A DNA stretch of 25,854 bases from a virus, in IMG/VR virus record IMGVR_UViG_3300030061_002585, positions 4,695 through 30,548 of that record. One strand, 5' to 3'. The position numbers and the translations under genes were made by a program. A model generated the notes under the pieces. It saw only the letters and a program-made list of their open reading frames with translations, was not told where the DNA came from and made no database searches. This document shows, one piece after another, positions 17 through 24,798 of this stretch; position 1 is the stretch's first letter, and each line of letters begins with the position of its first letter.

Positions 17-580
17 ATGGACTATAATTTTAAAATAGGAAATTTTGAAGGAGTAGGTAATAGGAAAAGGCCTAATAATGATATGGTATCTCAGTTTTTA
101 TCTGATAATAGCTCTGTATGGAAAGATTTTGATGTCTACCTATGGGGTAGTTACCCTGACAATAAAAAGACCTGGGATGTTGATTTTTTAGTTCATGCAC
201 CTCAAGGAATTGATACTGAGCAAATGGAAGAAATAAGTGTACGCTCTCTTGAAAATAGTATAATAAAGAATAAATTTTTAGCTGACATTGGTTTTTCAGA
301 TGAACAAAATATGATTGACTTTAATAATGTTATGAATACTTATAATACAACAGGTAACAAAACTCCTACTACAGGTTACATATATGCTGATAAATGGTAT
401 GCTGGTGACTCAGTATTTAGAGATAGAAATAAGATTACAGAAGGTATCTTAGAAGAAATGGATAATAATATGTATAAAAAAACATCGTTTATACCTTATC
501 CTAAAATGGTTAATAATATTAAAAAAGATATAAATTACTATAAAGACAAACCTATGTTAGTTTCAAGGAGAGGAGAATAA
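17..580 (+). CDS. Putative Pol-beta-type nucleotidyltransferase
   Basis: A 187-residue protein. Residues 42-59 read LWGSYPDNKKTWDVDFLV. This fits the Pol-beta-superfamily nucleotidyltransferase signature: a Gly-Ser (G44, S45) on a strand-turn, then D-x-D (D54, D56) on the next strand. D90 in a LADIGF context could be the third metal-binding carboxylate. Such enzymes transfer an NMP to protein, RNA or a small molecule; the substrate here is unknown. The ATG overlaps a possible upstream stop as TAATG (15-19), so it probably follows another gene in the same operon. It overlaps the next gene by one base (TAATG at 578-582). The N-terminus may be a short adaptor, and no signal peptide or membrane segment is visible. 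The family assignment rests on the motif only. It could instead be a degenerate, non-catalytic fold inside the virion cluster. Confidence 0.55.
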   Translation: MDYNFKIGNFEGVGNRKRPNNDMVSQFLSDNSSVWKDFDVYLWGSYPDNKKTWDVDFLVHAPQGIDTEQMEEISVRSLENSIIKNKFLADIGFSDEQNMIDFNNVMNTYNTTGNKTPTTGYIYADKWYAGDSVFRDRNKITEGILEEMDNNMYKKTSFIPYPKMVNNIKKDINYYKDKPMLVSRRGE

Positions 581-3666: not shown

Positions 3667-6600
3667 ATGGCAAAATTATCAGATTTATTAACACCTCCAT
3701 CTACATCAGGTGCTACTAAAAACATATTTACTCAAACTGATGAATATGAAAATAGTAAACAAGAGCTTAAGAAAAGAAGTAAGTTTTTTAACGAAACTTA
3801 TGACTATAATACAAGTGCTTTTGGAAGCTCTAACAATAATTCTAATTCTCCATTTGCAGGTTTAGAAAGCACAGAAGAAGAACAAGGTGCTTTTATGAGT
3901 TTTGCTTCTGGAGTTGGAGATTTTACAGGAAACTTAGTAGGAGGTCTTATTAACTCTGCAGGTTTAGGTATACCTGGACTTATAGATGACATATTAATGG
4001 CTACGAATGTTACTGATACTAGCTGGATTAGAGAAATAACTTCTTTTGGTGCTTATGATCCTTGGGAAGAAGAAGGTGGAGCAGGTAAATGGGGAAGAGG
4101 TCTTGGAGAAGGTATAGGTATGATAATCCCTTACAAATGGTTAAGTATGGGAGCAGGTAAAGCTATTACATATGGAGCTAGTAAAACAAACTTCTTAACA
4201 AGTCTTACTAAAACTTCACAAAAAGCTTTTACTGGAAAGTATTTAGCTAAAGAAGGTTCTGATAAATTAGTAGGAGCTATAAATAGAGTAGGTGGAGCTC
4301 GTGCAAGTCAAGTAATGGATGAGACTACAGATGCTTTTACTAAAGGATATTCTAATTTATTTAATGATGCCTGGGAATTAGTTCATAGTGCTCCATATAA
4401 AAAAATATTAAAAGGTTCGCAAAAAGCTTTAACTGAGGGCGTTGAAGAAATGACAGGCTCTATTATGGGTACTATACCTAAAATAAGTCGTAAAGATGCT
4501 AAAAACTTAGCAGACATATTAGTCAATGAGGCTAGTCATCAATCAGCTTCAAGTTTTAATACCTTCTTTGAATGGATGGTTACTAAGACTCCTGGGTTAA
4601 GAGGCATTGCAAATAACACTTATGCTAAACAAGCAATGGGTGCTTATGTATCTGATTTTACAATAGGTATGACTATGTTTACTGCTGAAGCTGTTCTTCA
4701 TAATAGTGCTGTAGGAATTGCATCTGTGCTATCAGATAAGAGTTTTTCAGACATAGCTGGTCAAGTAGACCCTAGGTCTAAAGCAGCACAAACAGTGCCT
4801 ACAGATGGTAATTTTGGGCGAGTATTAGCAGATGTAACTATGTCTTCTGCTTTTATGGGATTAATGGGTCCTGCAAGATTTATTAAAGGTGGTACTACAT
4901 ACAATGACCAAGGGCTTTATAAGTCTATTAAGCAAGGATTAGGTTCTATTACAAAAGCATGGAAGCCTATAGGTAGAATGACAGGCGATCAAGCAAGAAC
5001 TACTTTAGCTATGATAGATGAAGCTGCAGATGGTTTGTTGCGTAATAAAATCCCTAGTTTAGGTGTTAAAGAAATAGCAAGTTTAAGTGATGATGTTGCT
5101 AAACAAATATTAAAAGAAACCAGACGTAGCTTTACTAAAGAATATCCTAAATGGTTATTAAAAGAATTTGCTTCAGACATGAATGTTATATCTGATATTG
5201 CAGGTGTAGCGACAGGTAAAGGTTTTCAATCTTCTGTACCTAGAATGATTGCAGGTGCAGTAGCAATGAATGCTCCTGGTTTGTTTAGACAAATGCAAGA
5301 TAGCCCTCGAGAGTTTTACAGAGCTTTTGGTCAAGACGGACAAGAAATAGCTCAAAACATAGTAATGGGTATGGCTTTTTCTAGAAGTGGTAGAAGTTTT
5401 AATGCTGGTGGTAAAAATAAATACTTTGAATCTGGAGATTTAAGACAATATTACGGCAACAATATTAATGATATAAATAAAATGAGATTAGGTTTAGAGT
5501 TAATGGGTATGTCTACAGCAGATATGTCTTTAGCTTCTCCTAATGCTATGTATGCCGCAACATCTCAACATGTTAAAAACCAACCTTTCTTTAAAGATAT
5601 AGATGATTTAGTATTTCATGATTTTTATGTAGACAGAGTAGACCCTAATGCTCCAGCTGATAGAAAAGAAGCAGGTACAGCTTACTTTGAGTATATACAA
5701 AACGATTTAGGAATACAGCCTGGTACTCCAGAGTTTAAGATTGCAGTAGAAAAGTATAATAACTTTAAAAAAGTAATGAATGCATATGATTCAAGTGCTC
5801 CTGACATTAATAAAATGTTCAGAACTGTTAATGGTAAAGAAATGCTAGATTTAGTAGAGAATGTAAATTCGCTACCTGAAGTGGCTAACTCTAAAAACTT
5901 AGACCTTACTATAAGCAATGCTACAACTCAAGCTTATATTAGTGCTAATAAGCCTTATATAAACATTAGAAAAGAGTTTGTTGTAAATACACTAAGAGCT
6001 GCAGGTATAGATGTAGAACCTCGTAATGATGGTACTGTTGTAATTCCTGAAATAGACTTAGAGGTATTCGGTTCAAGTAACAGAGAAAGTAATTATGTTA
6101 GAAATACAGAGCTTATAAATGCAAAGTATAATTTAAAAACAGTTATAGACCAAGGTGTTAAAGATGGTTGGATTAATGTACAAGGATCAAGAAATCTAAC
6201 TTCTAATCCAGAAACTATGAAAAACTTTGTAGATTCTTTTAGTAAATCAAAAGAAGCTATGTTAGTGCATATATATGGAGCTGAAGACGTTAAAGCAGGA
6301 GCTTTTCCTATTGGAGGCAAAGATGCATCTGAGTTAGTATTAATTAATGAAGGTATGAGAGAAGCTTCTATACAAATAAAACAAATGGAGCAAACTAGAA
6401 ACTCTTTATCTTTATTAACTAGAGGTAACTATACAAAGCAAGAACTATACAACACTCTTCCTGAAGGAAAAAGAGAACGTATTGTTAACTTAATGCAACA
6501 AATAGGTATGGATAAAAATCCTCAATTAGATTTGTCTAATGTAGACCCTAAAGAGATTGATGGAATAACAGACTTTTTTGCTAAAGTAAACTCTTTAAAT

Positions 6601-9540: not shown

Positions 9541-12500
9541 TAGCAGATAAACTTTTCTCTTACTTCTTTGAAGGTGGTAAGATAGCAACTAACCAAGTAG
9601 GAAATAGCTCAATTACTCCAATGGCAGCTCCTATACATATGGACCTTGGTAGTAAAGACTTAGCAATTAGAAGATACGAAACAATAGTAGATGGTTCAGG
9701 TCAAACTGTTAAAGTTGGAAGACAAATTGTTATTGGTGACTATACTCCTGATTACTATCATATGAATAAGCAGTTTTCTTTTAATGGAAGGACAAATACT
9801 AATTTAAGGAATGGTGATTCTAATGTAGCTAATGAAGGTAGTTTCTTTGTTAGACGAATGAAAATTAATATCAATGGTACAGAAAAGACTGGAGACTTTA
9901 CTATTATTCCTGTAAAAGCAAAGAAAGGTGGAAAACAGGAATGGGCTATAGTAGGTATGGGTTATGAAATATTTGCAGACAGAATTGTTGATATTAATGT
10001 TAAAGATCAAAATGGAAATTCTAGTACCACTATTAAGGGTGATAATAAAACTATTTACGACACCGTTATAGCTGAAATGAATGATGTTTATGCTGATCTT
10101 TTATCTAGAGTTGATAATGCTAATAACAATAAGGGTATGACAAATCTTGATGTTGCTGATTATTTAGCTAAAAACTCTCCAGATATTAAACTAGGCATAT
10201 TAAATAATAGGCAGCCTAGAAACTTAGTTAATGATGTTGTTATTAATAAAATATCAGCAGAGTCAGTTACTGAATTAAGAAATGGTCTTAAGATTCAAAA
10301 GAACAATTTTACTACAGAACGTGAAGCTGGTAACAAGTCAGAGCAAAACTTTGTAGATGCAATAGAAACACAGGATTCAGATTATGACTATGATAAGTCT
10401 AGTGCTTATTTATCAGCTCCTGGAAGCTTTATTAAAGACATAGCAGGTAAAGCAGGTTATGGTAATAGAAATGATAGTTATTCTTTTGCTGAAAAATTCT
10501 TTGCTGAATTAAATCTGCAGCTTGATAGTGGTAGTGAAATGGCTGAACATTTAAGAGTAGTTAAAAACTCATCTGCTGTAAGAGGAAGAATAGTTAAACT
10601 TCATAATATTGTTAGTTACTTTAAAAATGCTTTTAGTAATGATGCTGTTTTAGGTAGGTATGATTACAATAATCAAGGCTATGAAATAAGATTAAAGGGT
10701 AATGCTGAGTACTTAATGGTAGCAGATAATGTTGCAAACTGGGCTAAAATATTTATTGATAACTATAAAAACCCTACAGACAGTTATAATATACAACCTT
10801 TAATAGAAACTATATTATTTGGAGACTCTGGTAGAAAGCATGAAGGGTTGTTTGAAATTGTTAACACTCGTACTAATGAAAAAACTCCTTATATTGATGG
10901 AGCTTTTAAAGATATTAAACGTGTTATTAATCAAAAGATGGTTAAACCTATTAGTAAATACTTAAGATTTAATAGGGGTATGACTGAAAATCAAGCAGGT
11001 GAATCACAATCATTAAAGTTAAAAGACTTAGCTAATGGTTTTGAAACATTACAAAAAGACTTAGACAATCCATATATATATGATAACAACTGGCAGTTTT
11101 CTGTAGGAAATAAATCTGATTATGCTTTAAATATAAGAAATGGTATGCAAACTTTATCTGATTATATATTAGGAGGTTGGTCAAATAGTGTTAATATAAA
11201 TTCAAGCCAAAATCCTTATGATATAGCTATGAGAAATTTAAATGCTTTTTACAGACAAAGTATTGCTGGTAAAAATACTGTTCTTAAAACATCTGATGTT
11301 CAAAACATTATGAATAAAGCTGAAGCTGGAATATTATTAGAATCAGAAGGTATAGCTGTATTTGATAGACAGAAAATATCTACTGCTTTATGGGAGCATG
11401 TTAAAAACGACTTTGATTTTATAGAAGTTACTAACTTAACTTACAGAATACAATCTTTGCAGAAGCAGCATGATTATTTAAAGAGAGACAAGTATGCAGA
11501 TCAACAAGAAATTAAAGAGTTAAGCACTAAAGTAGCTCAATTAGAATTAATTAAGTCTGATTTAGAATTAAAACTTGGAGCTCAAAGTGATTATGAATCT
11601 GGTAAAGCAACCTTTAAATTAGGACGTAGAGAGGCTAAAACTTTTCAAGCTACTCAAGATATAGTATTTTGGGATAAAGATGGTAATATAGCCATGACCT
11701 TAAATAAAGGTGATTATAATAGCGTGGATATTAAATCAGACTGGGTAGCTATTACTAACCCTAGAAGGTTTGCTTTAGTTCATCCTGATCAACAGAAAAA
11801 AATGTATGCTAAAATGCAAGCATTTAGTTCTTTACCAATGGAAACTAATAGTAATTCTAAAGATGTTACTTATATGGGTGACAAAGAATATCAAAGGACT
11901 ATAGTTCCTGTGTTAGCTAGATTGCAAGCTGAAATGAAAGTAGAAAAACAAAGATATAAAAAAGGACAGATAGATGGTGTAGAGCTTTCTGTTAATAGAA
12001 AAGCTATTTTAAACAAATATTTAAACGATGAGAGCATTATTACTCCATTGCAAAGAAAAGCTATTATATGGGACCTTATAAGACCAAATACTGATAGAAG
12101 TAAAGTGTCTTACTTTAAAAGCAATGAAGGTGAAAATATTAATAGTTTATATTTGTATGAAAACCCTATGAATAAAACAACTTGGCAGCTTTTAATGGAT
12201 GTTATTGGCCAAGAGTCTTTTACTTTAAACAATAATATGAGTAAACTAGAAGCTAAAAATTTAGCTCAAGAAATAATAGGAAGACAGACTTTGTCATTGC
12301 TTGGTGTAAAAAATCATCATTTAGAAGTTAAATTAGATTATAGTTTTGGAGACTTTAATGCTAATAAGAATAGAAACCTTTATATAGAGTTAAATAATAA
12401 AGATTTACAAAAAATGCCTGGGTTTGATGCTGATTCTCAAAGAGCATTAGATATATTAAACGATTTCATACATAAAGAAACTTTACTTTCACCTGCTCAA

Positions 12501-12692
12501 GTATATAGACTGCAACAAAAAGTAGATATGAATAGTCCTGATATATTTGATACAAACTCTAACGCTGTAGATAGAATACCAATAAGAAGAAAAAGAGTTT
12601 TTGGTAGTTCAGAAGAACAAACACCTGTATCTTTTATAGCTGAATTGAATCAACATAAGAAGAATAAGAGAAAGATTAACTGTGCAGAATAA
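9528..12692 (+). CDS. Giant virion protein with NRxP and DYDYDK motifs, candidate RNA polymerase beta-prime-like half
   Basis: 1054 residues, overlapping the upstream gene by 13 bases in the -1 frame. No good ribosome binding site lies near the ATG (the closest, GAGGAA, is about 18 bases away), so translation is probably coupled or frameshifted. Residues 227-230 are NRQP, and residues 283-290 are DSDYDYDK with D285, D287 and D289. In multisubunit and crAss-type RNA polymerases, the beta-prime-like barrel carries an RxP motif followed by the metal-binding DxDxD loop (NADFDGD in bacteria). The spacing here is about 55 residues, against about 35 in bacterial beta-prime. The remainder is helical and polar, with a basic tail (KNKRKINCAE). 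In the beta/beta-prime order it follows a protein with candidate barrel lysines. Alternatively it is simply an ejected structural protein in which DYDYD occurs by chance. Confidence 0.55.
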   Translation: MGDIVADKLFSYFFEGGKIATNQVGNSSITPMAAPIHMDLGSKDLAIRRYETIVDGSGQTVKVGRQIVIGDYTPDYYHMNKQFSFNGRTNTNLRNGDSNVANEGSFFVRRMKININGTEKTGDFTIIPVKAKKGGKQEWAIVGMGYEIFADRIVDINVKDQNGNSSTTIKGDNKTIYDTVIAEMNDVYADLLSRVDNANNNKGMTNLDVADYLAKNSPDIKLGILNNRQPRNLVNDVVINKISAESVTELRNGLKIQKNNFTTEREAGNKSEQNFVDAIETQDSDYDYDKSSAYLSAPGSFIKDIAGKAGYGNRNDSYSFAEKFFAELNLQLDSGSEMAEHLRVVKNSSAVRGRIVKLHNIVSYFKNAFSNDAVLGRYDYNNQGYEIRLKGNAEYLMVADNVANWAKIFIDNYKNPTDSYNIQPLIETILFGDSGRKHEGLFEIVNTRTNEKTPYIDGAFKDIKRVINQKMVKPISKYLRFNRGMTENQAGESQSLKLKDLANGFETLQKDLDNPYIYDNNWQFSVGNKSDYALNIRNGMQTLSDYILGGWSNSVNINSSQNPYDIAMRNLNAFYRQSIAGKNTVLKTSDVQNIMNKAEAGILLESEGIAVFDRQKISTALWEHVKNDFDFIEVTNLTYRIQSLQKQHDYLKRDKYADQQEIKELSTKVAQLELIKSDLELKLGAQSDYESGKATFKLGRREAKTFQATQDIVFWDKDGNIAMTLNKGDYNSVDIKSDWVAITNPRRFALVHPDQQKKMYAKMQAFSSLPMETNSNSKDVTYMGDKEYQRTIVPVLARLQAEMKVEKQRYKKGQIDGVELSVNRKAILNKYLNDESIITPLQRKAIIWDLIRPNTDRSKVSYFKSNEGENINSLYLYENPMNKTTWQLLMDVIGQESFTLNNNMSKLEAKNLAQEIIGRQTLSLLGVKNHHLEVKLDYSFGDFNANKNRNLYIELNNKDLQKMPGFDADSQRALDILNDFIHKETLLSPAQVYRLQQKVDMNSPDIFDTNSNAVDRIPIRRKRVFGSSEEQTPVSFIAELNQHKKNKRKINCAE

Positions 12693-12700
12693 GGAGAAGA

Positions 12701-15586
12701 ATGTTTAACATAAAAAGATCATTTGCATTAGGTGATTGTAAGCCTAAAATAACTGAAGAAAGTTTAGGTGAAGAACAGTTTAATAAGTCTTCAAAAAATA
12801 AAGAACAGGCAGCCCAAATGCTGCAATCATCTAGAACTTTAGGTAGATTAGGTGTTAATAAAGATATTAAGTTGTTTAGAGACATATTTGAATCTGCTAC
12901 AAGAAAAGATATAACCCTGCATGAAATGACTGATGCTGATTTAAAAAAGTTTAAATGGGAGTTGCAAGACAGAGAGTCTTGGGTTGAGGATGGTTTTGGT
13001 ACTGCTGGCACTGCTTTTAGAGTTTTAGAAGCAAATTTAAAAAGAATACCTGGAGGAAAAGATTTATATAATAGTGTAAGAAATATATCTGCTTATCATA
13101 GAGAACATACTCGTGTTAATAACAATAGAATATCTATTATTACAGATAAAATAGGTAAACTAGCTAAAGAAATAGAATACGTGGACAGTAATGGTGACAG
13201 AGTAAAAGGTATTGATATTAATAAACTTGCAGAATTAGAAACTAAAATTGTAGGTGCTAGAAATACAGCAGAAAAAAATGAAGCAATGAATGAGATAACA
13301 AAGTATTTAGGTGCATTAAACTCTGAAAACTCAAGAACTGCAGCAGGGGATCTTTATTTAAGTGTTAGAGATGCAATGGAAAATACTCCTATATCAGAGT
13401 TAAAAAGAACAAATGCTGATGGTGATAAAGTTCCTTGGGGTAGTAAAGAACAAGAAGCTTTAAAGGTTATTCAAGACAATTGGTTTGAAATGAGAAAAGA
13501 TTTAGTTAAAGTATTAAAGAATGCTTTAAGAACCGAAAAGCGTGTTATTTCGCAAACAGATAGAAACGAAGGTGGTAGACGTCGTTTAACTGAATACTTA
13601 GATAGAATAGACCATTACATTAATACATTAGAGTTTCAAGAAAGTAATCAACCTTTAGGAAGAAAGTATTCTGTATCTGGTAAAGAAAAATATGAGTTTA
13701 ATTTAGATGGTAATAAACATTATGAATTAAATACTGAGTTAGGATATATGCCTCATTATGTATTGTCTATAACTAAAGACTTACAAATGTTTAATGATTA
13801 TGCTATGGACCATACTCAAACTAAAACTGCATTTGAAACTTTTGGAGATCAGGTTAGGTTATGGGAAGGCGGAGAAGGCGTATTAAATAGAGTTAAAGGA
13901 AGACAAGATATAAATCAAGAGTATTATTCTAGAAATCCTTTCTTATTTTTAAGTAAATATTTACATGAAGTATCAAGTTATAATCATCAAGTTAGTTTAA
14001 AAGAAGCTACACAAGGTGTATTTAATATGATGGTTAACTTTAAAAGAAACGGCAAAGATATAAGCTCTGATGATGATATGGTAAATAGATTTGTTGAACA
14101 AGCATCAGAAGTTGTAAATCAATTAAGTGAATCTGCTTTAGGACAAGGTCATACAAATAATGGTTTTGGAGATAAAATGTCTAGAGCTTTAACTGGCTTA
14201 ATGTTTATACGTACAATGGGTTTTAATACTAGGTCTGCTCTTAGAAATAAAGGTCAGGTATTATTAGAAAAAATTAGAATGGGTTATTTTAGAAGGAATG
14301 AGTCTTCTGATTATTTAACCGACACTACTATAGAAACAGACATGAAACTTGAAGCTAAGAAGCATGGTATTTTGTGGACTAGAGATGGAAACTTTTTAAA
14401 GAAGTTGCAAACAGCTTATTATGATTCTCAAGGTTTAGAGGGTACTAAAGGTTCTATAGAAGGTAAAGCTTTATTGCCTGGTCTTAAAGAAGTTACTGAT
14501 CCTAAGACTGGTAAGAAAACAATAGAAATGGTTGATGAATCTATGGGTGATAAGCTTTTAGATGTTATAAATACAGTAGCTCAAAAAGGTTCAGTACTTC
14601 ATACTATGGTTGAGAATACAAACAGATTTGGTAGTTTTAAAGTAGGTTTTTCTGTAGCTCACAAAAATTTAAGCAAACAACCTCAGTGGTGGATAGAGCA
14701 AGAAATGAGGCAAACAAACACCACCCCAGAACAAAGACGTCAATGGATTAATGGTGAAGCTGGAAAACTTGCTTACAATGTAGTAAGTGACGTTCATTTT
14801 GAATATGGTAAGATGTTTAAATCTCCTATATTTCAATCAGGTACAGGACAAGTACTTGGTCAGTTTCAGCATTATAGATTCTCTTTATTTAATATGCAAC
14901 ATGATATAATGAAAAGAGGTTGGAGAGATTTTAAATCAGGAGATATAAGTTGGAATAATGAAGGAATAGCACAAGCATATAGACTTGGAACTACTTATGC
15001 AATGGTTTCAGGCTTAACTAGCATGTTTGGTCTTGGTCTTACTAACTTATTCTCAAATGATAATGTTGAATGGTTAAAATCAAAGTATGCTTTTTATACA
15101 GCAGAAAGAGATTCAGAAGGCAAGTTAACTGATGAAGGTAGAAAACAAGCAGAACAAGCAACTTATGGTGCAGGTTCTTTTTCTGATTTAGGTCCTACAG
15201 TAGGTACTATAATAGAAATTGGTGAAATGGCTCATTGGTGGACTGTTGATATGGATACTTATTTACCTATGCTTAAAAACGATGCACAGGATATGAAAGA
15301 CTTAGAATCTGAAGACATGTCATATAAAATAATGAGATTAGCAAACATACAGTTAGCAAGACTTACTCATCATACTTTACCAGCTCTTTTTAATAGGAAC
15401 TTAACTAAAGCTTTTTATACAGAAACAGGTCTTTATACTGATTATGAAACACAGCAACAGTCAGAGCAGTTTTGGGATTGGGCAAGGGATCTTACTGGGA
15501 TAGAAACTACAGGAAGAAAATCCCGTAAAGTTAATATCCCAAAAGTAAAATCTAATAGAGTTAGACCAAAAGGAATAACAAGATAG
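12701..15586 (+). CDS. Large internal/ejected virion protein
   Basis: 961 residues, preceded by AAGGAGAAG at ideal spacing and eight bases after the previous stop. The N-terminal half is helical and charged. Around residues 690-730 it contains VSDVHFEYGKM followed by GQVLGQFQHYRFSLFN. I associate this arrangement with the C-terminal segments of giant phage internal or ejected proteins. A hydrophobic stretch at about 760-787 and a second near 835 could insert into or line a membrane channel. The tail is basic (KVNIPKVKSNRVRPKGITR), as expected of a protein packed against DNA. It is the last gene of the + block and most likely works with the two giant proteins before it. Its exact role, whether ejection channel, scaffold or RNA polymerase partner, cannot be told from sequence. 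Confidence 0.6.
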   Translation: MFNIKRSFALGDCKPKITEESLGEEQFNKSSKNKEQAAQMLQSSRTLGRLGVNKDIKLFRDIFESATRKDITLHEMTDADLKKFKWELQDRESWVEDGFGTAGTAFRVLEANLKRIPGGKDLYNSVRNISAYHREHTRVNNNRISIITDKIGKLAKEIEYVDSNGDRVKGIDINKLAELETKIVGARNTAEKNEAMNEITKYLGALNSENSRTAAGDLYLSVRDAMENTPISELKRTNADGDKVPWGSKEQEALKVIQDNWFEMRKDLVKVLKNALRTEKRVISQTDRNEGGRRRLTEYLDRIDHYINTLEFQESNQPLGRKYSVSGKEKYEFNLDGNKHYELNTELGYMPHYVLSITKDLQMFNDYAMDHTQTKTAFETFGDQVRLWEGGEGVLNRVKGRQDINQEYYSRNPFLFLSKYLHEVSSYNHQVSLKEATQGVFNMMVNFKRNGKDISSDDDMVNRFVEQASEVVNQLSESALGQGHTNNGFGDKMSRALTGLMFIRTMGFNTRSALRNKGQVLLEKIRMGYFRRNESSDYLTDTTIETDMKLEAKKHGILWTRDGNFLKKLQTAYYDSQGLEGTKGSIEGKALLPGLKEVTDPKTGKKTIEMVDESMGDKLLDVINTVAQKGSVLHTMVENTNRFGSFKVGFSVAHKNLSKQPQWWIEQEMRQTNTTPEQRRQWINGEAGKLAYNVVSDVHFEYGKMFKSPIFQSGTGQVLGQFQHYRFSLFNMQHDIMKRGWRDFKSGDISWNNEGIAQAYRLGTTYAMVSGLTSMFGLGLTNLFSNDNVEWLKSKYAFYTAERDSEGKLTDEGRKQAEQATYGAGSFSDLGPTVGTIIEIGEMAHWWTVDMDTYLPMLKNDAQDMKDLESEDMSYKIMRLANIQLARLTHHTLPALFNRNLTKAFYTETGLYTDYETQQQSEQFWDWARDLTGIETTGRKSRKVNIPKVKSNRVRPKGITR

Positions 15587-17371: not shown

Positions 17372-17673
17372 ACATTCTCCTCTACCATTGCCCAAAGTAA
17401 AAACAAGTATACTATAGAATCTGTTATTCGACCTCTAACATCTTCCCTTTGAGATTCGTAACCTTTTACATGTGCACTTATACCATCTATGTGCTTTAAA
17501 AGGTATGTCATTAAAGCTTTTTCTCTAGATATATCTAATGATTTAGCTACTCTTTCAAAGTTTGCAAATACATTAGCAGTATCATGAGCATATTCTTTTT
17601 GACCTTTATCTCTAGTAGTAGTTACTTGTTCTACTAATACTCTGAACAGTTTATCATAGTGACTTTTATTCAT
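17332..17673 (-). CDS. Conserved phage hypothetical protein (all-alpha)
   Basis: 113 residues, all helical. The pattern GQKEYAHD...ANFERVAKSL...KHIDGISAHVKG...SQREDVRGRITDSIVYLFLLWAMVEE matches a family I recognise from many phage genomes as an uncharacterised early protein. The Glu/Asp arrangement and helical bundle recall MazG-like all-alpha nucleotide pyrophosphatases, but I cannot assign metal ligands. The start overlaps the primase-helicase stop by eight bases, so the two are coupled, and its 3' end overlaps the winged-helix gene. A role in nucleotide metabolism or DNA modification is a guess. Confidence 0.55.
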   Translation of the reverse strand: MNKSHYDKLFRVLVEQVTTTRDKGQKEYAHDTANVFANFERVAKSLDISREKALMTYLLKHIDGISAHVKGYESQREDVRGRITDSIVYLFLLWAMVEENVCTTIQTTKQGKS

Positions 17674-19411
17674 AAGTTTTATTTATCCTTACGTTATCTA
17701 CTTTTAACTTAACATCAAGCTGCTCTTTTTCTCTATTTTTAGTACTAGTTATATGAAGCATTTCTATAAGTCCTTTATCATTTTTATAAGGTTTTATAGA
17801 TAGCAACTTATTAGCATTATAAGCAACTCTAAATGAACCTTTAGCAGAGGCCATATTCATGCCTTCATTAAATGCTTGTTTAGATATTTCGCTTACAGCA
17901 AATACTATTATATTGTGTTTAACAGCTAGTTCCATTAAAGCTTGTGATGCTTCTTCTACTTTTCTGTTATTATCTTCATACTTAGACTTTAATAAGCCCA
18001 TATGATCAACAATAACAACTTCAGGTTTAACGGCTTGCATTAAGATTCTTTTCTCTAACTCATTAGGATAACATGCTGAATAATCAACTGTTAACCATTT
18101 AAATCTTTCTTGCATACCATTTTTACCTGATAAGTAGTGACTTTTAAGCTCTTCTTCTGACCAACCCATTTCCATCATAACAAACCTAGACCATATTTGT
18201 CTTGGAGACATCTCCATTTCCATAAAGTATGTTTGTTTCTTCAAATCTATCATCCAATTTTGTAATAACATTGTTTTCATTGAAGCTGGTGGTGCTTGTA
18301 CAATTACTACTTCACCAGGATATATTGGAAAGTCTTGTCCGTATAACTGCCCTATATTACAGGGACTTACGGTACTTTGAAGAAAGTTTATTAACTCATC
18401 TTCCATAGCATCAGCATCCATAGTTGATTGAGATTTCTTTGCTTTATAAAGTCTACAGGTATTTTTACAATGAGCATCCATAATAGGGTCTGCACATCCA
18501 TATCTATAACCTGCACCTCCATGTCCATCATAGCAATTATCTACAATCTTGTCCATTTCTGCTTTAGTGAATTTATGTTCAGTAGAATCTACTTTTTGTC
18601 TCCAGTTTTCCATAACTAATCTTACAGTTTCTTCTGGATACAACCATCTAAACCAAGATGCAACTCTTAACGCAGTCATATGACGTTTGCCAAAAGATGT
18701 TCTAGATAGCATAGATGATATACAAGGATAATTAATAGGGTCTGCTGATCTTCCGTGAGACACTACAATTGATTCTTTAGATTTCTTATCAAGCTTTTCA
18801 AAGCCTGTATTTAAATCAAATACGGGGGTTTGTGCCTTAAATATTTCACCGTCTGGCAAATCTTTAGGGGTTATAGCATGATGATAAATTTCATCTACTG
18901 TCCAATCTTCTTGAATCCAAACCTTGTATAAATTAGATTTAGTGTTTTTAGTATTAGGAACTCTTATAATTCTAGTCTTATCTGTTACCGAAGGGTCAGC
19001 ATAATCCCATATTTTATAATCAGCTAATACTTTTTTTACTTTCATGTGCAAATTAACATCAGGTGAAGACCTAAAAGCCTTACCTCCTATATGCAAATGA
19101 AAACCTGTACCACTAAAATACAGATAATAAAGTACTTTAAGTGACTTTAATAACTTTATTAGTTTATGACACTTATCATAAGCTACATCTACGTTAGCTC
19201 CATCTATATCTAATATAAATTCATCAGGTATATAAATCTTACCATTGTAACCAGACAATGTGTTTTTCTTAGCAAAGTATTCTTTTACATCATCGTCATA
19301 ATCATATAACGACATAAAAGTATTACTATCTAATCCTAACCATTGATCTATTTGTGAAGCTTCTTGAAAATAGTGTCTTCTGCTTAAACCAAAAGCAAAC
19401 TCTTTAATCAT
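17666..19411 (-). CDS. Archaeo-eukaryotic primase fused to DnaB-like helicase
   Basis: 581 residues. The primase half has D68-I-D70 (FILDIDGA), then SGTGFHLHI (residues 100-108, H105 and H107), and then DPSVTDKTRIIRVPNTKNTK (139-158). These are the three hallmark segments of archaeo-eukaryotic primases. A cysteine cluster, C293, C306, C315 and C319 (YGCADP...HCKNTC), probably binds Zn or an Fe-S cluster. The helicase half is a RecA-like ATPase: Walker A APPASMKT (373-380), Walker B EVVIVDHMGLL (D469), and a late SAKGSFRVAYNANKLL motif typical of DnaB/SF4 enzymes. The protein should prime and unwind the replication fork. Walker A is unusual because both glycines are replaced, although K379 and T380 remain. 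The start has GGAGGAAAAAAG just upstream and overlaps the preceding gene. Confidence 0.88.
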   Translation of the reverse strand: MIKEFAFGLSRRHYFQEASQIDQWLGLDSNTFMSLYDYDDDVKEYFAKKNTLSGYNGKIYIPDEFILDIDGANVDVAYDKCHKLIKLLKSLKVLYYLYFSGTGFHLHIGGKAFRSSPDVNLHMKVKKVLADYKIWDYADPSVTDKTRIIRVPNTKNTKSNLYKVWIQEDWTVDEIYHHAITPKDLPDGEIFKAQTPVFDLNTGFEKLDKKSKESIVVSHGRSADPINYPCISSMLSRTSFGKRHMTALRVASWFRWLYPEETVRLVMENWRQKVDSTEHKFTKAEMDKIVDNCYDGHGGAGYRYGCADPIMDAHCKNTCRLYKAKKSQSTMDADAMEDELINFLQSTVSPCNIGQLYGQDFPIYPGEVVIVQAPPASMKTMLLQNWMIDLKKQTYFMEMEMSPRQIWSRFVMMEMGWSEEELKSHYLSGKNGMQERFKWLTVDYSACYPNELEKRILMQAVKPEVVIVDHMGLLKSKYEDNNRKVEEASQALMELAVKHNIIVFAVSEISKQAFNEGMNMASAKGSFRVAYNANKLLSIKPYKNDKGLIEMLHITSTKNREKEQLDVKLKVDNVRINKTYE

Positions 19412-19686: not shown

Positions 19687-20214
19687 TTAATCAGGCATAT
19701 TTGCAAATACATTATCATCTACAAAAGAACTTGAGCTTGAGCTATCATCCTTTTTAACGTAGTCATTATAGTATTTTACAGCTTTGCCTTTCCAGTAGTT
19801 AACATCATTCTCTTTGAATGTTTCAACTACATTAGTAAACTCTATTGGAGCTGGCTGAGATAGTACTCTAAAGTACTCTCCGTCTTTATGTAAGAATACA
19901 TGAAGACTTTTGCCTATTAACTGATCAGCTGAGTCATCAAGCTTAACGATTTTAGTACCGTCATCACCATCTAAAGACTCAGTTAGCCCAGCATTTGCAA
20001 AACGAAATAATCTGCCAATAGCAAACTCTTCTCCATCTTTACCCTTCTTAGCGTATACACGCATATTAAGAGTCTCAGGAAAATCTTTGAAGTGAACATC
20101 AATATATTTACTTCCTTCCCAGTCGCCATATTTAGCAGCACTTATTTCTACAAGATTCCAGCCATCAGTAAAGTTTCCTCCACCTCCGCCAGACCTAATT
20201 GTTAGTGTTCTCAT
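19687..20214 (-). CDS. Probable ssDNA-binding protein (DUF669-like)
   Basis: 175 residues from the ATG of MRTLTIRS, eight bases after AAGGAGG; the three codons before it belong to a longer reading with a poor start. The N-terminal two thirds look like a beta-rich OB-type domain: GWNLVEISAAKYGDWEGSKY, then a strand, and MRVYAKKGKDGEEF. The C-terminus has a Ser run and an acidic tail (KKDDSSSSSSFVDDNVFANMPD), as in many phage ssDNA-binding proteins, where the tail recruits partners. Its gene overlaps the Sak4-like ATPase gene by 20 bases, and DUF669/SSB proteins are typical neighbours of Sak4. It most likely coats ssDNA and works with the ATPase and primase-helicase. Family naming is tentative; the ssDNA-binding role is more secure than the exact family. 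Confidence 0.65.
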   Translation of the reverse strand: MRTLTIRSGGGGGNFTDGWNLVEISAAKYGDWEGSKYIDVHFKDFPETLNMRVYAKKGKDGEEFAIGRLFRFANAGLTESLDGDDGTKIVKLDDSADQLIGKSLHVFLHKDGEYFRVLSQPAPIEFTNVVETFKENDVNYWKGKAVKYYNDYVKKDDSSSSSSFVDDNVFANMPD

Positions 20215-20962
20215 TAGAAGCACCTCCTTTTTTATTTAACGTTTGCAAACTCAGTGTTTTACCACTGCCAGGAGCACCGATAACTAGTATCTTGCATCCA
20301 TCAAATCCTTTTTGCTTTGCAGCATCAAGCACTAATTGATAGTCTTGAGGAATTTGAGCAGGTAGTAAATTTGTTCTATCTTTAGCATGATCGTATGTCT
20401 CACAACGTTTAGTAATCCACACCCATTCTCTTTCACCTGAAGACTTTTTAATTGTCTTAGTGTAAAGAACGAAATCAAACCATTTAGATATATCTTCTTT
20501 AGTTGAACCATCGATATAAGGTATTACTTTATTACCTTCATCCATAGATTGAACTTTTGAATGACAATTACATATAACAGTGCCAGGTATTCTAGATATA
20601 AACTCTAAAGCTGTATCTAGTTTATTTTTTAATTGGCCCCATCCTTGTAGTTTCATCTTACCATCTTTATCAGAAATACTTCTCATAAACTTTTTAGATA
20701 GCTCAGAGAAAGTGTCTAATACAACACCATCTATTATAGTATTACCTCTAGGTAGTACTTCTACTCTATCTTCAGTTATTGTTAAGTCACCGATTTTTAC
20801 ATCTACTGTATTAGATTTCTGTGTATAAATCTTACCAATAGTTGACTGGAATTGATCCCAGGATTTAGGTTCTAAACATGGGTATCCAAATATAGATTCC
20901 ACATCTTTTTTAGAGCCTAGCGATTGTGACCCGTGTTCCAGGTCAAAGTATAACATCTTCAT
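20195..20962 (-). CDS. Sak4-like RecA ATPase, apparently circularly permuted
   Basis: 255 residues. All the core elements of a phage Sak4/AAA_24 ATPase are present but in a rotated order. The protein begins with MLYFDLEHGS (D7, E9), normally found just after Walker A. Walker B GVVLDTFSEL (D83), the sensor-like VICNCHSK (H134) and the late KWFDFVLYTK strand follow. The Walker A strand and P-loop, KILVIGAPGSGKT (K235, T236), come only at the C-terminus, after a linker. In known Sak4 proteins Walker A is near the N-terminus. Joining the C-terminus to the N-terminus would rebuild a standard domain of about 240 residues. Sak4 proteins pair with SSB-like partners to anneal or exchange strands, and the SSB-like gene overlaps here. 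The start follows AGAGGAGAG. A conventional split or a missing upstream domain is less likely, because the parts add up to one domain. Confidence 0.75.
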   Translation of the reverse strand: MKMLYFDLEHGSQSLGSKKDVESIFGYPCLEPKSWDQFQSTIGKIYTQKSNTVDVKIGDLTITEDRVEVLPRGNTIIDGVVLDTFSELSKKFMRSISDKDGKMKLQGWGQLKNKLDTALEFISRIPGTVICNCHSKVQSMDEGNKVIPYIDGSTKEDISKWFDFVLYTKTIKKSSGEREWVWITKRCETYDHAKDRTNLLPAQIPQDYQLVLDAAKQKGFDGCKILVIGAPGSGKTLSLQTLNKKGGASNENTNN

Positions 20963-21147: not shown

Positions 21148-21804
21148 TTATCTAGCTTGTATCATAGTAGTTGGAAAGTTGAATGAAAGTTCCATATCTA
21201 ATGGTTGTTTCATTACAAATTTTCTGATAGCATTGACTATAAAGCTGCCTGACATATTGCTACAATAGCTTGTTGCTTTTGCATTGCAAGGTTCAGGATC
21301 TCCATCTTCATCGCTATACCATGATTTAAGGTAAGATTTTAAGGTAGGTTTAAGAAACAGATACTGCTGATAATGTTCAGCGCCCATTCTACCGTCTATC
21401 ATTAACATTGGTTGATTAAACTTACTACTGTTAGTTATAATTGTTACAGCCTCCAATCTTGATGCCATTGAATCAAACCCAAGTATAACTACATCAGCTG
21501 GTTTATTACTTTTTTCCCATTCATCAAAACGTTTAGCGTGAGATATAACTGTTATGTCATCATCTACTGCCTTAATATGTTCTTTTAAAGCATCTACTTT
21601 AAGTTTACCAATATCATTTTGAAAGTATTGAGATACTCCGACATTTTCTATTTCTACTTTGTCAAAGTCATGTAATACCAAGTCTTGTGCACCCATTCTT
21701 GCTAATTGCATTGCAACAGAGCTGCCAATTGCTCCACATCCTAAGATATGGAAACAAAAGGCATCTAAATTGTCTACTATTCCTATTGAACGTTCATTTA
21801 TCAT
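21148..21804 (-). CDS. ThiF/E1-like adenylating enzyme
   Basis: 218 residues, a single ThiF-type Rossmann domain. Residues 19-30 contain HILGCGAIGSSV, the glycine-rich nucleotide loop. DFDKVEIENVGVSQYFQNDIGK (46-67) follows, equivalent to the D-x-D-x-V...N and DIGKxK segments of E1/ThiF/MoeB enzymes that adenylate the C-terminal glycine of a ubiquitin-like protein. C173 and C181 in EPCNAKATSYC are candidate thioester cysteines in the position expected of short ThiF proteins. No ubiquitin-fold domain is present. The ATG overlaps the JAB stop as ATGA, with GGAGGT as its ribosome site inside the JAB gene. Given the neighbours, it should activate the ubiquitin-like protein at 24586-24798. A sulfur-carrier role as in ThiS activation is the alternative. 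Confidence 0.85.
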   Translation of the reverse strand: MINERSIGIVDNLDAFCFHILGCGAIGSSVAMQLARMGAQDLVLHDFDKVEIENVGVSQYFQNDIGKLKVDALKEHIKAVDDDITVISHAKRFDEWEKSNKPADVVILGFDSMASRLEAVTIITNSSKFNQPMLMIDGRMGAEHYQQYLFLKPTLKSYLKSWYSDEDGDPEPCNAKATSYCSNMSGSFIVNAIRKFVMKQPLDMELSFNFPTTMIQAR

Positions 21805-22796
21805 ATTTTACCTCCAAAAGTTCCATTATAATCAGAAACTTCTTTTTGTAAGGCTAAATCTCTAATAGACGTTCCATCTACTGTAATAAAATCACCAGGG
21901 AATAATTCCATGCATTTATTTAGTAACAATGGTTTATCAAACAAGATTACTCTTATTCTAGGTTCATTATTACCTTCAAGCTTTTCTAAGGTATCATTAA
22001 ACTCTTGGATAGCTATAGCATATTTTTCATATGTTATTGAGCCTTCACAATATTTTTCATTGCCTTGTTCCAATTGTTCAACTAAATACGATATAGGAGA
22101 CTCTTGTATAGTTGCACCTATTCCATGATAAGAATATCCTGTTAGTTCTGATGATTCATATTCATCTATCAGTTCTTCTAAACCTGTACTCTTAGCTCTT
22201 TCTTTAGCTTGATTATTCCATAGTGTAGCTTGCCCATAACCATTATAACTATAACCATTATGAGTATGCTTATAACTACTAATTGTTCGCTCAGAGCATT
22301 TATCTTCTATTTCTTTAAGAATAGCTTTAGGTATTGCTCTCTCTTTAGCTTTATTAGTCATTATATTTAATTCAATATCTTCACCTATTTCATATGGATG
22401 CCAATATTGAACTCTAAACTTATATTCTTCTCTTACGTTTACCACTAGAAAAGCTGACCAGTGACTGTTTTTATATTCAGTCATAGTGTTTGTATCTGTA
22501 CCTGACCAGAATGCAGCCATCTTAGCATGTGAATGCCACCATAAGAATTGTAAATCATTACCATATTTATGTGCCATGTCAGCATAATATTGAGCTAACT
22601 CATCTTTATCTAAAGTACACGTAGATCCTGTGGTTTCTTGCTTAAGTATAGTAGGCTCTTTAATAATATAATCATCATCTTTATCTTTAATGATTACAGC
22701 CATACCACCTATTTCATCACCACATTCTTGTTCCCTCGCTCTGGCATAGTTAATTATTCTATCCCAGTCTTTTTTATGAATGTAAAAATCACTCAT
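21801..22796 (-). CDS. JAB/JAMM metalloprotease with long C-terminal extension
   Basis: 331 residues. The JAMM zinc site is complete: E28 (GDEIGG), then H88-S-H90 followed by seven residues, S98 and D101, exactly the HxH-x7-S-x2-D pattern. The catalytic domain covers about residues 1-140. The remaining 190 residues are not recognised; they include a Gly/Tyr-rich stretch (YSYNGYGQ, about 205) and a helical region. Family members remove ubiquitin-like proteins or trim their C-termini. Here the likely tasks are cutting the ubiquitin-like precursor after its GG and reversing conjugation. It lacks the NlpC/P60 domain of lambda-type tail JAB proteins and lies away from virion genes. AGGAGGTAAT precedes the ATG, and the stop overlaps the E1-like start. 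The C-terminal GGKI is dictated by the downstream ribosome site. Confidence 0.88.
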   Translation of the reverse strand: MSDFYIHKKDWDRIINYARAREQECGDEIGGMAVIIKDKDDDYIIKEPTILKQETTGSTCTLDKDELAQYYADMAHKYGNDLQFLWWHSHAKMAAFWSGTDTNTMTEYKNSHWSAFLVVNVREEYKFRVQYWHPYEIGEDIELNIMTNKAKERAIPKAILKEIEDKCSERTISSYKHTHNGYSYNGYGQATLWNNQAKERAKSTGLEELIDEYESSELTGYSYHGIGATIQESPISYLVEQLEQGNEKYCEGSITYEKYAIAIQEFNDTLEKLEGNNEPRIRVILFDKPLLLNKCMELFPGDFITVDGTSIRDLALQKEVSDYNGTFGGKI

Positions 22797-22821
22797 ATTA
22801 CCTCCTAAGTTAAGTTGATAA

Positions 22822-22857
22822 TCCCTATTTTATAGTCTCGCTATAAATTAATAGGGA
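22822..22857 (-). other. Structured intergenic element D, hairpin between E2-like and JAB genes
   Basis: TCCCTATT (22822-22829) pairs with AATAGGGA (22850-22857), and directly inside it TTATAG (22830-22835) pairs with CTATAA (22841-22846). That makes fourteen base pairs with a three-base bulge and a five-base loop. It fills most of the 69-base gap before the JAB gene. No U-tract follows, so it is more likely an RNA processing, stability or translation-control element than a terminator. Confidence 0.6.
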
Positions 22858-22865
22858 ATATCTGT

Positions 22866-24482
22866 TCATTGTTGATTCATAGCATGTGCCCATGCTGCCA
22901 TTTCCTCTTGCTCATCAGTATGTTCTAGCTCATTAGCATGTCTTTGACTATATTGCTCATTAACTAAATCTACTAATTCTTTGTGACTCTTACATTTAAG
23001 TATAGCGTCTAATAACAGTACGTTATAACTATCATCTTCACATACTTTTGTAATTTGCTTATCTAAACAATATTGAAGTATTTGAATTGCTTTCTCACTT
23101 TCTTTGTTTACAAATGCATTTTCCAAAAGTCCATGAGGAGTACGAATATCTCCAAACTGTTCAGTACAATATGTAATATCAGATATAAGGTCTATAAATC
23201 TGTGACCAAGCCTATCTTCTTCCTGTTCATTTGGTAATAGTGTTTTAACTTCTAACTCTGTTACAAACGTTCTGAATGCATCTCTCATCTCAAGTCCAAT
23301 AGTATTATTTATATAAGGTCTACATGAGTCTCTAAGTAAACATTCTTTAGCATCACAATTTTCTACAACTCTAGAATTGACATTAGTGTCATCTATGCGT
23401 TCTAAATAGTGAAATGTTTTATTATAACAATTTTGACCACTATTATGACCAACAACATCATAATAATCATCAGTTTTTTCTACACCATTTAAGTCATAAA
23501 CCTTAATTTTGCCACTTGTCGCTCTATCAATAGTATTTAACGGACCAGTTACACCACATTTATATGTAGTTAACCACATATCTACGAAATAACCAAAAGT
23601 TGTCCAATCTAACTTTAAGTAAGAACCTAGAATATCACCCATCATATCACCCATACACACATTACCTGTGCCATAACCACCTCTACTAACATAAGGATGA
23701 TCATTGCCCATTGTATTGGTATGTAGCTCACCATTTGCAACAAAGCCTCTAAAGCTACCATTGTATCTATATCTATGATGAGTAGTTAAAAGTTTACTTT
23801 GTAGTCTAATATCATTATGAATTAACTGATTTTGCTCTAAATTCAAATAAGGATATAAAGTATTAAACCATATTGACAAAGGAAATGTTAAACTAAATGT
23901 TAAACCTCCAAAGTCAATAACTCCTAGTTCTCTATTTTGATTATTTCTGTCTCCAACAGATACATTTATTTTTAAATCAGGTATACATATTTTAGTTTGA
24001 ACAGTTGTACTTGCAAAGTTATCTCCTTCATGTATGTATACTTGTGAATCAGGAAATACTTCTCTAAGTTTCTCTAATTGCATTTCTAACGTTGTTTTAA
24101 ATAGATTAAAGTGCCCTTCTATTTCATCTGTATCAGTAATAAATGTCTGACCTGAATCTCTTAAATCATATAATAACCTATCTAATGATAACAACGCTTC
24201 TTTTACTCTATTCTTTGAGTAAGTTCTTTCTCTGCTAAACAAACTTTCCATTCCACTTGGTCTTTTATCCCACTGCAGCCATCTTTGAGACAACACATTC
24301 TTAACTTTGTCATAAGTACCAGGTTTCCACCTAAACTTAGGAGTAATACCTAAATTGTCATTTGGATTCCTTACCCATTCATTGTTAAATCTTGCTATTG
24401 TTTCTAACACATTTGCTTGAGGACCTATATATAGATCGTCCATAGCAGTTTTTACATCGATACTATATCGTTCTAGTTCCAT
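22866..24482 (-). CDS. E2-like ubiquitin-conjugating-fold protein, large
   Basis: 538 residues. Residues 262-279 read HPYVSRGGYGTGNVCMGD, which fits the E2 active-site signature: HPN(V/I), a glycine, then (V/I)C with the catalytic cysteine (C276 here), followed by a Trp (W293) in LDWTTF. The preceding 100 residues alternate short strands (VQTKICIPDLKINVSV, LGVIDFGGLTFSLTF) as expected of the UBC meander. Upstream is a helical N-terminal region of about 150 residues. Downstream, H346, C352, H358, C376, C381 and C387 could form a zinc site, and the C-terminus is helical. Typical E2 domains are about 150 residues, so this is a much larger protein. Its position between the ubiquitin-like and JAB genes supports a conjugation role. 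The fold is inferred from the motif and context. The ATG follows CTGGAGAATAT. Confidence 0.65.
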   Translation of the reverse strand: MELERYSIDVKTAMDDLYIGPQANVLETIARFNNEWVRNPNDNLGITPKFRWKPGTYDKVKNVLSQRWLQWDKRPSGMESLFSRERTYSKNRVKEALLSLDRLLYDLRDSGQTFITDTDEIEGHFNLFKTTLEMQLEKLREVFPDSQVYIHEGDNFASTTVQTKICIPDLKINVSVGDRNNQNRELGVIDFGGLTFSLTFPLSIWFNTLYPYLNLEQNQLIHNDIRLQSKLLTTHHRYRYNGSFRGFVANGELHTNTMGNDHPYVSRGGYGTGNVCMGDMMGDILGSYLKLDWTTFGYFVDMWLTTYKCGVTGPLNTIDRATSGKIKVYDLNGVEKTDDYYDVVGHNSGQNCYNKTFHYLERIDDTNVNSRVVENCDAKECLLRDSCRPYINNTIGLEMRDAFRTFVTELEVKTLLPNEQEEDRLGHRFIDLISDITYCTEQFGDIRTPHGLLENAFVNKESEKAIQILQYCLDKQITKVCEDDSYNVLLLDAILKCKSHKELVDLVNEQYSQRHANELEHTDEQEEMAAWAHAMNQQ

Positions 24483-24511
24483 ATATTCTCCAGTTAAAGT
24501 TTATATCAATT

Positions 24512-24567
24512 GGGAGTGAAGATTTTACAACACCAATGGGTGGTTTACGTAAACACGTATCACTCCC
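24512..24567 (-). other. Structured intergenic element E
   Basis: Outer stem GGGAGTGA (24512-24519) with TCACTCCC (24560-24567). Inside are TTTAC/GTAAA (24524-24528, 24549-24553) and CACC/GGTG (24531-24534, 24539-24542). A perfect 12-base palindrome GTTTACGTAAAC lies at 24543-24554. It sits between the ubiquitin-like and E2-like genes. The outer stem shares GGGAGTG with element A. On the - strand TATAAA follows (GATATAAAC), a possible -10 box. Confidence 0.6.
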
Positions 24568-24585
24568 TCATGACCTAACACAATC

Positions 24586-24798
24586 CTACTTAACTTCTTT
24601 ACCACCAGTTTTGTTAGATGATACAGCAGCTACATTCATTCCATCTTCTAATGTATAATCATCAGATACTACAGTTCTGTTTACATTAATAGTATGAGTT
24701 TGTAGGTCAAGCTCACGTCTTAATGAACCAACAGTTGTTGATGTAACTTCAGTTTCTGCAAATGAAGATGAATTGTTTAATAAGTTAATCTTTGGCAT
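24586..24798 (-). CDS. Ubiquitin/ThiS-like beta-grasp protein precursor
   Basis: 70 residues, preceded by AGGAGG at ideal spacing. The second half follows the ThiS/MoaD/ubiquitin pattern: a helix (VGSLRRELDL, about 23-32), a strand with INVNRTVV, then YTLEDGMNVAAVS, where ThiS-like proteins have LxDGDxVxxV. It ends SNKTGGKEVK. The Gly-Gly at 65-66, followed by four extra residues, is the form of a precursor that a protease must trim to expose GG for adenylation. The JAB protease and E1-like enzyme are encoded just downstream with an E2-like protein, which supports a protein modifier rather than only a sulfur carrier. It is shorter than ubiquitin (76) and close to ThiS in length. The N-terminal strand is less clear. 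Confidence 0.78.
   Translation of the reverse strand: MPKINLLNNSSSFAETEVTSTTVGSLRRELDLQTHTINVNRTVVSDDYTLEDGMNVAAVSSNKTGGKEVK

What the first reader, a model, noticed from the sequence alone, without database searches (positions are those of the whole stretch)
21148..24798. A phage-encoded ubiquitin-like cassette: modifier, E2-like, JAB protease and E1-like in one run
Read on the - strand, the order is a GG-containing beta-grasp protein, a protein with an HPxV...VC motif, a complete JAMM site (E28, H88, H90, S98, D101) and a ThiF-type GxGxxG/DxD adenylating domain. These are all the parts for processing, activating, conjugating and removing a ubiquitin-like protein. Known bacterial sets with the same parts include Bil (BilA-D), type II CBASS Cap2/Cap3 and PRTRC systems, the first two being antiviral. 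Here the set sits in a phage replication arm next to a recombinase, so the phage may modify host or its own proteins, perhaps as an anti-defence or a takeover device. The function is inference; the parts are seen.
Basis: partly seen in the sequence, partly recalled or inferred. Interest (0 to 1): 0.93.

Follow-up and report, generated by a model that had tools for sequence, protein, structure and literature searches.

The report
Phage-encoded ubiquitin-like conjugation cassette
An uncultured tailed phage, and hundreds of its relatives, carry in their DNA-replication operon what look like all four parts of a ubiquitin-type protein-tagging pathway (tag, activating enzyme, conjugating enzyme and tag-removing protease), so phages may tag proteins themselves and not only be targets of bacterial tagging defences.

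Summary
On the minus strand, 21148-24798 encodes a 70-aa beta-grasp Ubl (C-terminus K63-T-G-G-KEVK), a 538-aa E2-like protein (HPY...C276), a JAB protease with a complete JAMM site and a ThiF-type E1. The set is conserved, not a chance run. All 98 IMG/VR loci with enough upstream sequence carry Ubl-E2-JAB-E1 in that order. All 96 distinct Ubls have K-x-G-G with tails of 0-119 residues. The JAMM residues, E1 C173 and E2 C276 are invariant in every alignment. The cassette sits directly upstream of ssDNA-annealing, SSB-like and primase-helicase genes (93 of 94 loci). Cultured crAss001-type and Flavobacterium phages carry a diverged counterpart. It was not found in 84,980 GTDB species genomes at the sensitivity used. 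It fails tested defining features of Bil, type II CBASS, PRTRC and the lambda tail Ubl. Best reading: a phage-owned, reversible Ubl-conjugation pathway used during replication; whether it targets phage replication proteins or host proteins is unknown. Weakest link: the E2 assignment (confident AlphaFold model with UBC-like matches in residues 125-325, but weak direct PDB matches). Conjugation itself is untested.

The parts
24586..24798 (-). Ubl: 70-aa single beta-grasp modifier precursor
   Evidence: AF2 pLDDT 84, E-E-H-E-E; Foldseek/VIA hits ThiS, MoaD, Ub, SUMO; ThiS Pfam matched by 25 of 60 homologues
24601..24612 (-). K63-T64-G65-G66: conserved C-terminal motif, predicted JAB cleavage after G66, followed by tail KEVK
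   Evidence: KxGG in 96/96 distinct homologues, tails 0-119 aa; K63, G65, G66 invariant
22866..24482 (-). E2-like conjugating enzyme, 538 aa; UBC-like core about residues 118-330 with N- and C-terminal helical domains
   Evidence: AF2 pLDDT 91, pTM 0.81; UBC enzymes align to 125-325; hhalign vs UBE2D2 above 241 of 241 decoys
23688..23699 (-). HPYV motif (E2 residues 262-265), counterpart of the E2 HPN motif
   Evidence: motif in homologues; aligned to UBE2D2 HPN by hhalign
23655..23657 (-). C276: predicted E2 catalytic cysteine
   Evidence: invariant in 77 homologues; aligned to UBE2D2 C85
23322..23429 (-). C352, C376, C381, C387: cysteine cluster C-terminal to the UBC core, probably zinc-binding
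   Evidence: C387 invariant, the others at least 90% conserved in 77 homologues; zinc is inference
21801..22796 (-). JAB/JAMM metalloprotease, 331 aa
   Evidence: Prok-JAB and JAB matches; profile best hit Caldiarchaeum Rpn11-like 6fjv, 5.8e-7
22494..22535 (-). JAMM HxH..S..D (H88, H90, S98, D101); E28 lies at 22713-22715
   Evidence: invariant in 56 homologues including crAss001 and Fpv3 phages
21148..21804 (-). E1-like ThiF-type adenylating enzyme, 218 aa, single adenylation domain; ATGA overlap with JAB at 21801-21804
   Evidence: ThiF 3.1e-21; profile best hits UBA5 2e-16, UBA6, ThiF, MccB
21724..21741 (-). GCGAIG nucleotide-binding loop (E1 residues 22-27)
   Evidence: G22 and G24 invariant, C23 and G27 at least 90%, in 47 homologues
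21286..21288 (-). C173: predicted E1 thioester cysteine
   Evidence: invariant in 47 homologues including crAss001 and Fpv3
20195..20962 (-). Neighbour: Sak4-like ssDNA-annealing ATPase
   Evidence: phrog_124 2.2e-23
19687..20223 (-). Neighbour: 178-aa putative SSB-like protein
   Evidence: conserved position between the annealing protein and the helicase; function inferred
17666..19411 (-). Neighbour: primase / DnaB-like helicase
   Evidence: phrog_19 6e-23, phrog_16345 primase 1e-18; downstream of E1 in 93 of 94 loci

Best explanation
A phage-owned, reversible ubiquitin-like conjugation pathway. JAB trims the Ubl after K-x-G-G. The ThiF-type E1 adenylates the exposed glycine and takes the Ubl on C173. 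It passes to C276 of the E2, which, with its own extra domains and cysteine cluster and no separate E3 seen, puts it on target proteins. JAB also removes it. The pathway lies in one operon-like run with replication genes and most likely acts in the replication/recombination stage. The preferred target class is the phage's own replication-recombination proteins or host proteins met there (about 45%), with dedicated anti-defence targeting next. Shown by computation: gene set, predicted folds of Ubl and E2, active-site conservation, gene linkage. Inferred: every catalytic step, the timing of expression and the targets.
For: Same four genes in the same order in 98/98 loci. KxGG in 96/96 Ubls; 22 end exactly at GG yet all 22 keep an intact JAMM, so JAB very likely does more than mature the tag. 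Ubl beta-grasp. E1 profile closest to UBA5/ThiF, JAB profile to archaeal Rpn11. E2 model pLDDT 91 with UBC enzymes aligned to 125-325; HPY/C276 align to HPN/C85 of UBE2D2 at a score no decoy reached. C276 invariant while E2 is the fastest-diverging member in 332 of 339 locus pairs, as expected of a target-selecting part. Purifying selection on all four (dN<dS). Fixed place ahead of annealing and helicase genes. No rhodanese or cysteine-desulfurase-type gene in 16 records.
Against: E2 is not matched by Pfam, NCBIfam, PADLOC or a direct PDB sequence or Foldseek search; the matches to true UBC enzymes have Z of about 3.4-4.0 (UEV domains up to 4.7), within the range the tool calls common. No conjugate, thioester or substrate is known. 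Gene linkage does not show that replication proteins are targets. Loci were found through E1 or JAB motifs, so the sample leans to intact cassettes.
Confidence: 0.7

Rival explanations
1. Same biochemistry, but the targets are host defence or host-takeover proteins: the phage tags and disables or rewires host factors. The E2 diverges fast because targets differ between hosts.
For: Position in the replication arm; E2 is the fastest-diverging part while the Ubl is among the most conserved in the close relatives (dN 0.013); known bacterial sets act in phage conflict (PMC10097602; PMC12135933).
Against: The cassette is present in essentially all sampled relatives at a fixed core position, whereas anti-defence genes usually come and go (general knowledge). 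No direct evidence.
Confidence: 0.28
2. A sulfur-carrier or small-molecule pathway (ThiS/CysO-like): the Ubl is activated to a thiocarboxylate and the E2-like Cys protein is a sulfur acceptor or modifying enzyme.
For: Ubl and E1 are nearest ThiS/ThiF in the family libraries; JAB also occurs in sulfur-carrier operons (PMC1779556).
Against: No rhodanese or Aminotran_5 gene in 16 records, though the host could supply sulfur; UBC-like core with HPx...C motif.
Confidence: 0.1
3. The large protein is not a conjugating enzyme: it is a partner that binds the activated Ubl, and the Ubl acts as a single-target switch or self-modifier of the E1/E2 complex.
For: Weak fold matches; 538 aa is far larger than a minimal E2.
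Against: Invariant C276 in 77 diverged sequences; hhalign decoy test.
Confidence: 0.1
4. A virion-assembly role like the lambda tail Ubl (TAPI) with the JAB protease TAPK.
For: Phage Ubl plus JAB pairs are known there (PMC1779556).
Against: Here E1 and E2-like genes are present and the genes lie in the replication arm, on the opposite strand to the virion genes.
Confidence: 0.06

Closest known systems
Bil (BilABCD) antiphage system
   Same: Four separate genes for Ubl, E2, JAB protease and E1; BilC trims BilA to free its C-terminal glycine (PMC11354881). The letter order A-B-C-D corresponds to Ubl-E2-JAB-E1, as here.
   Different: Phage-borne, in a replication operon; single Ubl domain; 218-aa single-domain E1 without the inactive adenylation half; E2 with HPY...C, not CEHH.
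PRTRC / Iyer 2006 operon type 6d (equating the two is from my own knowledge)
   Same: Small Ubl with C-terminal Gly, E2-like, JAB and E1 as separate genes (PMC1779556).
   Different: E1 far below the PRTRC_ThiF cut-off (27.9 vs 144.75 bits); no PRTRC_A match by the window JAB; no ParB-type gene among the annotated neighbours.
Type II CBASS Cap2/Cap3
   Same: E1 adenylation domain related (PADLOC E1-E2, 7e-17); JAB protease.
   Different: E1 and E2 not fused; dedicated Ubl present; no CD-NTase beside the cassette.
Lambda/T1 tail Ubl TAPI with TAPK (JAB-NlpC)
   Same: Phage Ubl plus JAB.
   Different: There no E1 or E2 and a tail-gene location (PMC1779556).
crAss001 gp79-gp76 and Flavobacterium phage Fpv3 counterparts
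   Same: Same order: Ubl-like N-terminal domain, Cys protein with MHSHx...C.G, JAMM, ThiF E1; JAMM and E1 Cys invariant with the window set; cr128_1 E2-like found by fold search (E 0.025, prob 0.82).
   Different: About 26-36% identical E1; Ubl domain carries a long C-terminal extension and an internal K-S-G-A/G instead of a terminal K-x-G-G; deposited as hypothetical, metalloprotease or thiamine biosynthesis proteins.

Membership tests
Ubl conjugation pathway (general: Ubl + E1 + E2 + DUB) | Beta-grasp modifier with C-terminal GG | tested here: met
Ubl conjugation pathway (general: Ubl + E1 + E2 + DUB) | E1 adenylation domain with catalytic Cys | tested here: met
   ThiF Pfam match; ATP-site residues and C173 invariant; that C173 forms the thioester is inferred
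Ubl conjugation pathway (general: Ubl + E1 + E2 + DUB) | UBC-fold E2 with HPx...Cys | tested here: inconclusive
   motif and Cys conserved, confident model, UBC rows in VIA, hhalign above decoys, but no significant direct match
Ubl conjugation pathway (general: Ubl + E1 + E2 + DUB) | JAMM deubiquitinase active site | tested here: met
Ubl conjugation pathway (general: Ubl + E1 + E2 + DUB) | Covalent conjugates formed | not testable with these tools
   needs an experiment
Bil | BilA with two tandem Ubl domains | tested here: not met
   70 aa, one beta-grasp domain; feature from PMC11354881
Bil | BilB CEHH motif (Glu, His, His at +6, +8, +13 from Cys) | tested here: not met
   window E2 has G282, I284, L289 at those positions (sequence; feature)
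Bil | BilD with inactive plus active adenylation domains and a Cys domain | tested here: not met
   218 aa, one adenylation domain
Type II CBASS | E1-E2 fusion Cap2 beside a CD-NTase | tested here: not met
   E1 and E2 are separate ORFs; flanking genes are replication genes
PRTRC | PRTRC family models reached | tested here: not met
   PRTRC_ThiF 27.9 bits vs cut-off 144.75; no other PRTRC model for the window proteins
Lambda tail TAPI/TAPK | Ubl and JAB in the tail gene cluster without E1 or E2 | tested here: not met
   E1 present, E2-like present, replication arm
Sulfur-carrier operon | Sulfur-mobilising partner (rhodanese or cysteine desulfurase) in the same genome | tested here: not met
   none in 16 records for PF00581 or PF00266; controls rang; host supply not excluded

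The most novel reading that the evidence does not exclude
A large group of uncultured tailed phages carries, as a core replication-operon module, its own ubiquitin-like system that tags and untags the phage's replication/recombination machinery (a phage analogue of SUMO/ubiquitin control of PCNA), with an E2 whose own cysteine-rich and helical domains serve as the E3. The same module occurs in crAss001-type gut phages.
Probability: 0.32. Interest if true: 0.94.

Novelty: new variant of a known kind. Interest (0 to 1): 0.84.

Why it matters
Complete Ubl conjugation sets are known in bacteria, where several fight phages; in phages only a tail Ubl-protease pair was described in the literature I could search. 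A complete set kept in hundreds of phage contigs would turn that picture round and raise the question of whether phages supplied or borrowed these parts. Because crAss001 and Flavobacterium psychrophilum phages carry a counterpart, the idea can be tested in cultured systems.

Tried and rejected
E2 by Pfam, NCBIfam, PADLOC, PHROGs: no family. E2 profile against PDB sequences: no UBC hit. Foldseek of the full E2 model against PDB: no significant hit. Two GTDB scans (E1, JAB): pattern hits but no relatives, so not a common host gene or prophage. Tblastn of the window E2 and JAB, and of the L013 JAB, against 50,697 phage records: none; only E1 found the crAss001/Fpv counterparts. Profile comparison of the E2 and Ubl families with the crAss counterparts was weak. 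A Bacteroidota host, suggested by those E1 hits, was not supported: Shine-Dalgarno-like sites precede most genes and TAnnTTTG is at chance level. Host remains unknown; terminase, portal, MCP and helicase have only remote isolate matches. Consensus promoters and terminators at or below chance. Literature: nine completed searches found no report of a phage E1-E2-JAB-Ubl set, but bioRxiv and most subscription journals are not held, so a published report could have been missed.

Full report
What is there. The window is part of an IMG/VR virus record of 30.5 kb and is 99.5-99.97% identical to a 52.3-kb record whose two ends both fall inside the E2 gene, so that record is close to a complete circular map. 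That genome has a large terminase, portal, major head protein, an internal-virion-like protein, endolysin and polynucleotide kinase: a tailed phage with no close isolate. Virion genes lie on the plus strand; the replication arm, including the cassette, lies on the minus strand.

The four proteins. (1) Ubl, 24586-24798, 70 aa: AlphaFold2 with a 60-row alignment gives E-E-H-E-E at pLDDT about 90 over residues 1-60; the top 50 Foldseek matches are almost all beta-grasp proteins (ThiS, MoaD, TGS, ubiquitin, SUMO) and VIA-align gives Z 9.2 to ThiS and about 7 to ubiquitin. (2) E2-like, 22866-24482, 538 aa: pLDDT 91, pTM 0.81. A helix (118-142), strands 147-151, 160-177, 183-201 and 247-255, HPYV (262-265), C276 and following helices give the order expected of a UBC core. 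(3) JAB, 21801-22796. (4) E1, 21148-21804, which overlaps JAB by ATGA, as in a translationally coupled operon.

Conservation. Scans with the E1 and JAB alignments found 367 and 352 viral stretches encoding relatives; the best 80 of each were kept. In all 98 loci with at least 5 kb upstream of E1, Ubl, E2, JAB and E1 occur on one strand in that order. Median gaps are 104, 2 and -9 bases. The sample was drawn by E1 or JAB motifs, so it leans to intact sets, and some loci come from the same contig; but a locus found by E1 need not have kept the other three, and all did. Even where other genes are inserted between Ubl and E2 or E2 and JAB, the four remain.

Active sites. E28, H88, H90, S98 and D101 of JAB are invariant in 56 sequences, including crAss001 and Flavobacterium phage proteins at 14-17% identity. 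The E1 ATP-site residues and C173 are invariant in 47 sequences, likewise including those phages. C276 and C387 of E2 are invariant in 77 sequences at a mean column identity of 12%. All 96 distinct Ubls have K-x-G-G; 22 end exactly there and the rest have tails of 1-119 residues with no obvious common sequence. All 22 that need no trimming keep an intact JAMM. This is the best evidence that JAB also removes the tag.

How sure is the E2. Sequence libraries do not know it, and direct Foldseek or profile searches of the PDB give nothing significant. In the VIA re-alignment, matches that cover residues 118-330 are mostly UBC or UEV proteins (E2 H, UbcH5, UBE2E1, UBE2F, Ubc7, Cdc34, Ubc9, TSG101) at Z 3.4-4.7, which the tool warns can be chance. 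HH-alignment of the domain profile with human UBE2D2 placed HPY on HPN and C276 on C85 and scored 21.1; the best of 241 shuffled or unrelated decoys scored 19.7. UBE2I (18.2) and UBE2N (13.9) scored lower. The comparison sequences were written from memory. I judge the E2 assignment likely, not proven.

Divergence. E2 is the least conserved of the four in 332 of 339 locus pairs with E1 identity of 70-96% (pairs are not independent). Between the window and L004 the Ubl is 97% identical, E1 85%, JAB 73% and E2 45%; dN stays below dS throughout. The region around the catalytic Cys is better conserved (62%) than residues 112-257 or the C-terminal half (31-38%). A fast-changing E2 with a slow-changing tag fits an E2 that chooses targets; that is inference.

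Context. In 93 of 94 loci a primase-helicase gene follows within 7 kb, median 1.4 kb, and in most loci read the gene just after E1 is an ssDNA-annealing protein (Sak4-like, or ERF-like by sequence pattern), followed by an SSB-like protein. crAss001 gp76-gp79 lie beside primase, uracil-DNA glycosylase, resolvase and exonuclease genes. So two diverged versions of the module sit with replication and recombination genes. This is why I prefer a role in that stage, acting on phage or host proteins there, over virion assembly.

Comparison with known systems. Iyer et al. 2006 (PMC1779556) predicted bacterial E1/E2/JAB/Ubl operons and a tail Ubl-JAB pair in lambdoid phages; the passages I read describe no phage E1 or E2. 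Bil has the same four functions, but BilA has two Ubl domains, BilB a CEHH motif and BilD two adenylation domains (PMC11354881), none of which holds here. CBASS Cap2 is an E1-E2 fusion; the phage E1 is related to it but is separate. PRTRC models are far below cut-off. It works like these systems but is not filed under any of them.

Verdict. A complete Ubl pathway carried by phages is, as far as the held literature shows, new as an arrangement; every part belongs or probably belongs to a known superfamily, so I call it a new variant of a known kind. Biochemical activity and targets are unknown.

Noticed in passing
L074:3068-3943, L165:6781-7728, L122 downstream of E1: A radical-SAM-like gene of about 290-315 aa (FGCxYKCxYCYMRRH) lies between Ubl and E2, between E2 and JAB, or downstream in some relatives.
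   Followed up: no
L021:2686-3300 and L069:2288-2878: Ubl followed after KTGG by an extra domain of 117-119 residues, which JAB would have to release.
   Followed up: partly
L176:2232-2909 (crAss001 gp79): N-terminal Ubl-like domain with internal K-S-G-A/G and a long C-terminal extension; deposited as hypothetical protein.
   Followed up: partly
window 3667-15586: Three very large virion-side ORFs (1957, 1054, 961 aa) without any PHROG or Pfam match.
   Followed up: no
window 17-580: Weak nucleotidyltransferase (NTP_transf_2, E 0.0028) match at the plus-strand end of the window, far from the cassette.
   Followed up: no
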